Shown here: one piece after another, positions 1,836-3,750 of the stretch | Layout: the number at the start of each line of letters is the position of its first letter | Position numbering within the stretch: the first letter of the stretch is position 1 | Source: Streptomyces sp. NRRL F-2580 | Lineage (GTDB): Bacteria; Actinomycetota; Actinomycetes; Streptomycetales; Streptomycetaceae | DNA length: 64,000 bases | Assembly: GCF_000720115.1 (NCBI RefSeq) | Contig: NZ_JOIR01000013.1 | Coordinates: 62,001-126,000 of the forward strand | Direction: 5' to 3' | Translations under genes and position numbers: made by a program | Notes under the pieces: model-generated | Databases searched by the model: none | The model's input: only the letters and a program-made list of their open reading frames with translations | What the model was told of the DNA's origin: nothing

Positions 1836-2576
1836 ATGGGACTTGCGGCGCAAAGGACCCGACACCTGTTGACGACAGCGACCGAAGTCTTCACAGTCCG
1901 GCCGTACACCCCTCACTGCCAGGTGATTAGCACCGAAGGCGACCATGCCGTCATTGGCATCTCCCCGGGGAACAGCTATTTCTCCGCCCAGCGCGTTCTC
2001 GACCTCGCCCAATGGGGGATGCGCAACTTCGAGCAGGTCGACCTCATTTACACCGACCTGCACGTGGCAGAGATGTACGAGGCCCTCGGCTACGGCGAGG
2101 ACGAGGCCCGACGCAAGGCGGTCAAGAACCTGCGTGGCGTTCGCGCCAAGGTGAACAACGCCGCCGCAGAAGCCGACCCCACCGGCACCCGCCTGCGCGC
2201 CCGGCCGATGTCCTCCCTCACCGACATCCCGGCCTACCGCGCTCTGCACAGCCACCTGAACAGCCTGCTCGACAACGACCCGGACTTCCGCAAGACCTGC
2301 AACTCCCTGGTCGACTCATTCCTCTCCTCCAAGGTCCTGGACGGGAAGTCCGCCACGACCCGGCAGCGGGAGGTGTGCCTCGAGTACGTCTGTGCCGAGG
2401 CGCCGCTCTTCCTCGACACGCCGGCCATCCTCGGCGTGCCGTCCTCGCTCAACTGCTACCACCAGCTCCTGCCGATGGCGGAACTGCTCTACTCCCGCGG
2501 TTCGGGTCTGCGCGCCTCGCGCAACCAGGGCCACGCCATCATCACGCCCGCCGAAGGACACCCCGATGCCCACTGA
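1836..2576 (+). CDS. cyclodipeptide synthase, probable cyclodityrosine synthase (Rv2275-like)
   Basis: A 246-residue cyclodipeptide synthase: a Rossmann-like class-Ic-tRNA-synthetase fold that joins two aminoacyl groups taken from charged tRNAs. The hallmark GISPGNSYFS (residues 41-50) contains the nucleophile Ser43. The second hallmark, EYVCAEAPLF, carries the conserved Tyr184 and Glu188. From about residue 12 to the end it resembles M. tuberculosis Rv2275 as I remember it, including the blocks TEGDHAVIG, EARRKAVKN, DTPAILGVPSSLNCYHQ and GSGLRASRNQGHAI. That makes cyclo(Tyr-Tyr) the best product guess. The start is uncertain: ATG 1836 has no clear ribosome binding site, while in-frame TTG 1869 lies behind AAAGGA and matches where homology begins. 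It overlaps the P450 gene by 11 bases. Confidence 0.9.
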   Translation: MGLAAQRTRHLLTTATEVFTVRPYTPHCQVISTEGDHAVIGISPGNSYFSAQRVLDLAQWGMRNFEQVDLIYTDLHVAEMYEALGYGEDEARRKAVKNLRGVRAKVNNAAAEADPTGTRLRARPMSSLTDIPAYRALHSHLNSLLDNDPDFRKTCNSLVDSFLSSKVLDGKSATTRQREVCLEYVCAEAPLFLDTPAILGVPSSLNCYHQLLPMAELLYSRGSGLRASRNQGHAIITPAEGHPDAH

Positions 2577-3750
2577 CACCCTGCTCGACTTCCCGTTCTC
2601 CGCGCGCGGCGACCAACTCCCCAGCGAGATCGAGGCACTCCGCAACGAGCCCGTGAAGCGGGTCCGCACGATCGCCGGTGACGAGGCCTGGCTCGTCTCC
2701 TCCTATGAACTGTGCAAGCAGGTCCTGGAGGACCCCCGGTTCAGCCTGAAGGACACGTCGGCCCCCGGCGTGCCCCGCCAGTACGCCCTGACGATCCCGC
2801 CCGAGGTCGTCAACAACATGGGCAACATCACCGGAGCAGGTCTCCGCAAGGCCGTCCTCAAGGCGATCAACCCCAAGACCGACGGCCTCGTCGACTGGAT
2901 GCGCGCCGAGGCCAACGCCCTCGTCGACAGCCTGCTGGCCTACGGCGCGCCGGTCGACCTGCGCGGCCAGTTCGCCAACCCGTACGCCGAGCGCCTCCAC
3001 TGCCGGATCCTCGGGATCCCGGAGGCCGACGCCCCGCGCCTGGCCGCCAGCCTCGACATCGCCTTCATGAACTCGGCCTGCCCCGTCACCGGTGCCAAGC
3101 TCAACTGGGACCGGGACATGGCCTACATGGTCGAGCGCCTGGACGACCCCGCCACCACCGGGCTCATGTCCGAACTCGCCGCCCTGCGCAACGACCCGGA
3201 CTACGCCCACCTGACGGACGAGATGCTGGCCACGGTCGGCGTCACGCTGTTCGGTGCCGGTGTCATCTCCACCATGGGCTTCCTGACGATGGCGCTCGTC
3301 TCCCTCATCCAGCACCCCGAGGTGTGGGAGCAGCTGCGCGAGGCGCCGGAGAAGATCCCGGCCGCCGTGGACGAACTCCTGCGCATCAACCTCTCCATCG
3401 CCGACGGGCTGCCCCGCCTGGCCCTGGAGGACGTCACCCTCGGCGACGTCGAGGTGAAGAAGGGCGAGCTGCTGCTGGTCCTGGTCGAGGCCGCCAACAC
3501 CGACCCGGCCGTGTACCCGGACCCGCACGTCGTGGACATCGACCGCGCCAACGCCGGCACGCACCTCTCCTTCGGCGGCGGGCAGCACTACTGCCCCGCC
3601 ACCGCCCTCGGCAAGCGGCACACCGAGATCGCCGTCGAGGTCCTGCTGGAGAAGATGCCCAACCTCCAGCTCGCCGTCCCCGTCGACCAGTTGGTCTGGC
3701 GGACCCGCTTCATGAAGCGCCTGCCGGAACGCCTGCCCGTGCTCTGGTAG
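2566..3750 (+). CDS. cytochrome P450, CYP121 / mycocyclosin-synthase-like
   Basis: A 394-residue P450, ATG 2566 behind GAAGGA (2553-2558), translationally coupled to the synthase. Heme ligand Cys343 sits in FGGGQHYCPA. ExxR is E270-R273. The I-helix reads FGAGVISTMG, so the usual acid-alcohol pair is replaced by Ile-Ser, as in CYP121. Shared CYP121 landmarks include PPEVVNNMGN, IAFMNS (Phe167), NWDRD (Trp181), Ser235 and the ending PERLPVLW. CYP121 joins the two Tyr rings of cyclo(Tyr-Tyr) by a C-C bond. Differences at equivalent active-site positions are Gln385->Met383, Arg386->Lys384 and, after the heme Cys-Pro, Gly->Ala345. Substrate is therefore likely cYY or a close relative, but the outcome may differ. 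No ferredoxin gene is adjacent. Confidence 0.9.
   Translation: MPTDTLLDFPFSARGDQLPSEIEALRNEPVKRVRTIAGDEAWLVSSYELCKQVLEDPRFSLKDTSAPGVPRQYALTIPPEVVNNMGNITGAGLRKAVLKAINPKTDGLVDWMRAEANALVDSLLAYGAPVDLRGQFANPYAERLHCRILGIPEADAPRLAASLDIAFMNSACPVTGAKLNWDRDMAYMVERLDDPATTGLMSELAALRNDPDYAHLTDEMLATVGVTLFGAGVISTMGFLTMALVSLIQHPEVWEQLREAPEKIPAAVDELLRINLSIADGLPRLALEDVTLGDVEVKKGELLLVLVEAANTDPAVYPDPHVVDIDRANAGTHLSFGGGQHYCPATALGKRHTEIAVEVLLEKMPNLQLAVPVDQLVWRTRFMKRLPERLPVLW

What the first reader, a model, noticed from the sequence alone, without database searches (positions are those of the whole stretch)
1836..3750. A mycocyclosin-type cyclodipeptide cassette (Rv2275/CYP121-like) in a Streptomyces
The synthase carries GISPGNSYFS, EYVCAEAPLF and the Rv2275-like tail GSGLRASRNQGHAI. 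The P450 matches CYP121 landmarks across its length and ends PERLPVLW. The gene order and 11-base overlap are that of an operon, closed by a strong terminator. In M. tuberculosis this pair makes cyclo(Tyr-Tyr) and mycocyclosin, and CYP121 is essential. A counterpart in a saprophytic actinomycete points to an ancestral, non-pathogenic role.
Basis: partly seen in the sequence, partly recalled or inferred. Interest (0 to 1): 0.86.

Follow-up and report, generated by a model that had tools for sequence, protein, structure and literature searches.

The report
Cyclodipeptide operon with structured RNA leader
A Streptomyces carries a known two-gene pathway that links two tyrosines into a small ring, and in front of it lies an apparently undescribed folded RNA that probably controls how much of the pathway is made.

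Summary
The gene pair is real: a tyrosine-type cyclodipeptide synthase (CDPS) overlaps a cytochrome P450 by 11 bases. It is not a new CYP121 counterpart. The P450 is an ortholog (87-88%) of Streptomyces flavidovirens GymB1; CYP121 is 62% identical. A review passage calls such "gym" pairs widely distributed in Streptomyces; six expressed pairs gave mycocyclosin plus guanine- and hypoxanthine-linked guatyromycines. At five pocket positions all 91 gym-type P450s aligned differ from three mycobacterial ones, whose branch nests inside Nocardia.

Checking the start codon exposed something else. The likely start is TTG 1869, not ATG 1836, and the ~50 bases before its ribosome-binding site form a conserved hairpin with compensatory changes. 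It precedes 76 of 76 strong (gym/gut-type) CDPS matches in 295 Streptomyces genomes, and 2 of 52 weaker ones, both broken gym copies. A divergent form precedes a small LuxR-type regulator at 10 loci. Four copies scanned reach no Rfam 15 family's threshold, and three paper searches found no description. I read it as a new cis-regulatory RNA family, possibly a translational riboswitch. Ligand and mechanism are untested.

The parts
1793..1798 (+). putative -10 element (TACCTT)
   Evidence: TANNNT found 17-30 nt before the CCACAC core in 64 of 77 loci, against 0.5% of 7600 flanking windows; a -35-like TTGA(C/A)N at 15-20 nt spacing in only 32 loci, not in the window. The consensus promoter scan found none. 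Promoter function inferred.
1805..1857 (+). structured 5' leader RNA: P1 1809-1813/1845-1849 (1808/1850 may extend it), P1b 1818-1819/1838-1839, P2 1821-1825/1831-1835, followed by the ribosome-binding site AAAGGA 1852-1857
   Evidence: Alignment A1 of 62 sequences; 7 of 13 pairs have changes on both sides; slid controls collapse. Model R1 (window is a training row) hit at 74.8 bits; next best in its genome 20.8 bits. Rfam: nothing near threshold.
1869..2576 (+). cyclodipeptide synthase (gymA-like, cyclo-Tyr-Tyr type), 235 aa from the TTG start
   Evidence: PF16715 295 bits, NF052540 431 bits; 64% identical to Rv2275, 76% to the CDPS of locus L009, S. flavidovirens DSM 40150; start codon.
2566..3750 (+). 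cytochrome P450 (gymB-like), 394 aa
   Evidence: 790 bits to GymB1 8q6z, 577 to 8q6x, 550 to CYP121; in the 9-row GymB1 clade, 100/98 support.
3778..3812 (.). 16-bp perfect hairpin between the P450 gene and the convergent gene at 3858-6260
   Evidence: Fold z -4.0 over 3748-3850; no T-run; a terminator role is inferred.

Best explanation
This is a gym-type operon. The CDPS joins two tyrosines taken from Tyr-tRNA into cyclo(Tyr-Tyr); the P450 oxidises it to mycocyclosin and, like GymB1, probably also couples it to guanine or hypoxanthine (inferred from orthology). The mRNA probably begins at or near a ~50-nt hairpin that ends at the ribosome-binding site. The hairpin has two covarying stems and a near-invariant internal loop (CACACC facing GGGAC). 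I propose that it is a cis-regulatory RNA whose internal loop is recognised by a small molecule or a protein, so that CDPS translation follows that signal. Shown here: conserved structure, position, specificity for gym/gut-type CDPS genes, and reuse before a LuxR-type regulator. Inferred: transcription start, regulatory role, mechanism.
For: Pathway. All 80 fetched loci (the best 80 of 124 confirmed) have a CDPS match upstream on the same strand; 49 of 80 allow the same 11-base overlap and 24 a 4-base one. Leader: covariation beyond shuffles and slides; concordant independent changes on the P450 tree at five of seven pairs tested; 76 of 76 CDPS matches at >=265 bits have a leader hit within 400 nt upstream, against 2 of 52 at 104-265 bits; 80 leader hits at >=49 bits in 295 genomes, 76 of them 31-239 nt before a CDPS match. 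Model R1, built without any LuxR leader, found six of them at E 2e-7 to 4e-4; R2, which includes those six, added four.
Against: The product is not measured. The window's single-sequence fold is unremarkable (z -1.8; 15 of 200 shuffles as good). One covariation measure, the number of pair types, does not exceed shuffles (17 against 16.7). No pair alone reaches significance on the tree; 9-58 leans against pairing and 15-53 gives nothing. A hairpin hiding the ribosome-binding site was not significant (p 0.07). R1 was built on loci that overlap the genomes searched, and one of the 76 leader hits (G122) scores only 32 bits. Two Nocardia loci, L072 and four mycobacterial sources from three genomes lack the leader, so it is not needed for the pathway as such.
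Confidence: 0.74

Rival explanations
1. The cassette is a strict CYP121 equivalent that makes only cyclo(Tyr-Tyr) and mycocyclosin.
For: Same lineage as CYP121, 62% identity; most of the 24 positions compared are shared, including C345, S237, W182 and F168.
Against: 87-88% identical to GymB1, and shares with it Y74, I78, I280, M385 and K386 (CYP121 numbering), where CYP121 has N, V, F, Q and R; six expressed gym pairs gave mycocyclosin plus guatyromycines A and B (review passage).
Confidence: 0.12
2. The leader is an RNA site for a protein (for example autoregulation by the CDPS or by a shared regulator), or an mRNA-stabilising 5' hairpin, not a ligand-sensing riboswitch.
For: Compact, no alternative fold shown; occurs before two unrelated gene families; CDPSs use aminoacyl-tRNA (established knowledge).
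Against: A plain stabiliser would not need a conserved internal loop: each position of CACACC and GGGAC holds one letter in 60 to 62 of 62 sequences.
Confidence: 0.45
3. The conserved block is a DNA operator around the transcription start, not an RNA.
For: It lies about 20 bases from a -10-like element.
Against: Stem letters change on both sides while pairing is kept and the loops stay fixed; an operator would keep letters, not pairing.
Confidence: 0.1

Closest known systems
gym BGC (GymA/GymB, guatyromycines) of Streptomyces
   Same: Two-gene cdps-p450 operon; P450 87-88% identical to GymB1; same residues at the five pocket positions.
   Different: Product of this copy unknown. A leader RNA is not mentioned in the review passage seen; the primary paper was not readable.
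Rv2275/CYP121 (mycocyclosin pathway)
   Same: CDPS 64%, P450 62% identical; same gene pair and chemistry class (review passages).
   Different: Pocket positions 74, 78, 280, 385 and 386 differ; the mycobacterial loci examined lack the leader.
outgroup CDPS-P450 operons with PtmB and 9o4d (guanitrypmycin/GutD-type is my recalled label)
   Same: 17 of 20 fetched outgroup loci (L091-L110) carry the same leader, although their CDPSs are only 40-49% identical; two of the 17 have no CDPS match.
   Different: The CDPS lacks Asn at the Rv2275 N251 position (A, S or H in 15 of 15 outgroup rows aligned, three of them leaderless), so other substrates are expected.

Membership tests
gym BGC | adjacent CDPS and P450 genes, overlapping | tested here: met
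   11-base overlap; a CDPS match upstream in 80 of 80 fetched loci
gym BGC | P450 in the GymB1 clade | tested here: met
   9-row clade, support 100/98
gym BGC | CDPS of the cyclo(Tyr-Tyr) group: NCBIfam equivalog and Asn at Rv2275 N251 | tested here: met
   431 bits against a cut-off of 300; N in the window and in 75 of 77 aligned rows, four short rows dropped
gym BGC | makes mycocyclosin and guatyromycines | not testable with these tools
   needs expression and LC-MS
CYP121-type mycocyclosin synthase (sensu M. tuberculosis) | Q385/R386 pocket pair; Arg386 named as influencing redox potential (PMC7801616 passage) | tested here: not met
   M/K in the window and in all 91 gym-type P450s aligned; Q/R or A/R in 3 of 3 mycobacterial ones
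structured cis-regulatory RNA | helices supported by compensatory changes | tested here: met
   63 double-change cells against 22 shuffled; covariation score 0.243 against at most 0.106 when slid; tree-aware test concordant but not significant pair by pair
structured cis-regulatory RNA | consistent position before one class of genes | tested here: met
   76 of 76 CDPS matches at >=265 bits against 2 of 52 at 104-265 bits
known Rfam family | match to any of 4227 models | tested here: not met
   four copies scanned at E<=10 (window, L073, L155, L045): no hit near a gathering score; best hit over the element itself E 3.3
riboswitch | binds a ligand and changes expression | not testable with these tools
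   needs probing and reporters

The most novel reading that the evidence does not exclude
A new riboswitch class: the naked leader senses a purine base or the cyclodipeptide product and gates translation of nucleobase-coupling cyclodipeptide operons, and it also controls a LuxR-type regulator in other Streptomyces.
Probability: 0.28. Interest if true: 0.82.

Novelty: new variant of a known kind. Interest (0 to 1): 0.58.

Why it matters
The enzyme pair is known. The leader would, as far as my searches show, be the first described regulatory RNA shared by CDPS-P450 operons, and it makes their control directly testable. Its reuse before a LuxR regulator suggests a common signal. Separately, the residue comparison gives a short list of pocket positions that set the mycobacterial enzyme, a drug target, apart from its relatives.

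Tried and rejected
A hairpin hiding the ribosome-binding site as expression platform: P(paired downstream) 0.62 against 0.56 for shuffled spacers, p 0.07 in 66 sequences; in the window it was 0.02 downstream but 0.98 in all, so there the site would pair upstream; not claimed. Extending P1 to columns 9-58: not supported on the tree. LuxR neighbourhoods (7 loci): four protein groups shared by 3-4 loci, ricin-like and thioredoxin-like by eye only; my ORF filter recovered the LuxR gene itself in only 2 of 7 loci, so this look was crude and gave no hint of a ligand. Matches under about 31 bits in L192, L194, L199 and L200, with none of the three genes behind them, were taken as chance. A sigma-70 consensus promoter and a T-run terminator: none found. 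Paper searches for a CDPS riboswitch or leader listed nothing on it; only titles and abstract beginnings were seen there.

Full report
The observation. The two genes are there as described. The CDPS scores 431 bits against the NCBIfam equivalog for cyclodityrosine synthase (cut-off 300) and 295 bits against PF16715. It is 64% identical to Rv2275 and keeps S88, Y229, E233 and Y253 (named catalytic from recall) and the Asn at N251, which the CDPS survey PMC5816076 (passages seen) ties to tyrosine recognition. That survey also reports four Streptomyces/Streptacidiphilus CDPSs of this group that mainly make cyclo(Tyr-Tyr).

What the P450 is. The best solved structure is GymB1 (8q6z, 790 bits), then 8q6x (577) and CYP121 (550). 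A UniRef label calls the 88%-identical S. flavidovirens DSM 40150 protein GymB1. A review (PMC10092475, one passage seen) says that a widely distributed gym locus was found in Streptomyces genomes, and that six such pairs in S. albus gave mycocyclosin, guatyromycine A (guanine) and B (hypoxanthine). The primary paper (Liu 2022, doi 10.1002/anie.202200377) is not held. In 295 same-genus genomes, 72 carry a relative at E<=1e-80; this count includes non-gym relatives.

Tree and residues. In a 69-row tree the window lies in the GymB1 clade (100/98). Three P450s (CYP121, M. ostraviense and L112 of genome G441) form one branch (100/100) inside a Nocardia/Longimycelium clade (100/99), and all lie in one gym clade (100/100) apart from the outgroup with PtmB and 9o4d. 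The base of the gym clade is unresolved, and the program flagged long branches (L101, L102, L103, 8q6x). At positions 74, 78, 280, 385 and 386 (CYP121 numbering) the three mycobacterial enzymes read N, V, F, Q/Q/A and R; all 91 gym-type rows, window and GymB1 included, read Y, I, I, M and K. A docking study (PMC7049898, passages seen) names these positions as ligand contacts in CYP121, and PMC7801616 (passages seen) names Arg386.

The leader. Aligning the upstream DNA of 11 relatives showed that the ATG at 1836 is not conserved and that indels break its frame. A ribosome-binding site and a TTG/GTG start follow at a spacing of 8-12 nt in 75 of 77 loci. Just upstream sits a conserved block, found by pattern in 77 of 81 loci, window included. 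A covariance model adds L075; the two Nocardia loci and L072 have no strong hit. Majority consensus: GYCGC-CACACC-N-GGRGC-RCNNG-GCYCC-N(1-4)-GGGACNNGCGRC, then AAGGA. Alignment A1 (62 of the 79 distinct copies listed): 90.7% of cells paired, 7 of 13 pairs with changes on both sides, 63 double-change cells against 22 expected from shuffles, and covariation score 0.243 against at most 0.106 with partners slid; the number of pair types does not exceed shuffles. On the P450 tree, concordant independent changes outnumber discordant ones at pairs 14-54, 27-37, 12-56, 10-57 and 28-36 (means 2.3/0.1, 2.5/0, 2.1/0, 2.6/0.3, 1.0/0); 15-53 gives 0/0 and 9-58 gives 0.1/0.6. No single pair is significant.

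Where it occurs. Model R1 over 295 Streptomyces genomes gave 80 hits at >=49 bits; 76 lie 31-239 nt before a CDPS match on the same strand. The other four are two P450 genes without a CDPS match (G114, G085), a P450 that matches in two pieces (G119), and a place in G199 whose following frame begins like the outgroup CDPSs. CDPS matches at >=265 bits, which I take as gym/gut type: 76 of 76 have a leader hit (G122's at only 32 bits). At 104-265 bits: 2 of 52 rows, G163 (CDPS in two pieces) and G275 (partial), both gym-like and broken. Seventeen weaker CDPS rows and leader hits under 26 bits were left out of this count, R1's training loci overlap these genomes, and the search notes that its filters lose some weak matches. 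R1 also found six divergent copies (E 2e-7 to 4e-4) before a ~115-aa LuxR-type protein (GerE domain in the one copy scanned), and R2, over 199 genomes, found four more. None of those ten genomes has a CDPS match at >=265 bits; G139 has a 50-bit one, and G080 also holds a degenerate gym copy (L150). In a class-wide sample of 296 genomes 11 matched at E<=0.01: eight of the same genus, two weak ones taken as chance (L199, L200), and one of another family (G1024) with the leader before a CDPS-P450 pair. A -10-like TANNNT precedes the core by 17-30 nt in 64 of 77 loci, against 0.5% background, so the RNA probably begins at or near P1.

Is it known? Four copies scanned against Rfam 15 at E<=10 gave no hit near a gathering score. 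Three paper searches found no description; the library lacks most subscription journals.

Judgement. The cassette is a new member of the known gym kind. The leader is, as far as I can see, an undescribed structured RNA family shared by gym and outgroup (gut-type) CDPS operons and a LuxR regulator. That it regulates is my best reading; that it is a riboswitch is open.

Noticed in passing
L147, L149, L151, L153, L154, L155, L189, L190, L191, L193: Divergent copies of the leader lie just before a small LuxR-type (GerE) regulator whose match begins about 70 nt after the leader's first base, in genomes without a CDPS match at >=265 bits.
   Followed up: partly
L097 (G085:C91) and L100 (G114:C61): The leader is followed by an outgroup-type P450 with no CDPS match in the fetched stretch, suggesting loss of the synthase while leader and P450 stayed.
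   Followed up: partly
L148, L150, L152, L157: Apparently degenerate gym loci: leader retained, CDPS or P450 reduced to fragments or not matched.
   Followed up: no
L195 (G1024, another family), 1017-1478: Leader core at 1017, then a short ORF 1074-1174, then a CDPS (39%) from an ATG at 1478 and a P450 (55%).
   Followed up: no
window 3858-6260, - strand: Convergent 800-aa ORF, UvrA-like by eye (no family search made); shares the intergenic hairpin with the P450 gene.
   Followed up: no
G000:C5:163306-163380: A weak second PF16715 match (24.7 bits, under the cut-off) in the window's genome, inside a 493-aa frame; probably chance.
   Followed up: no
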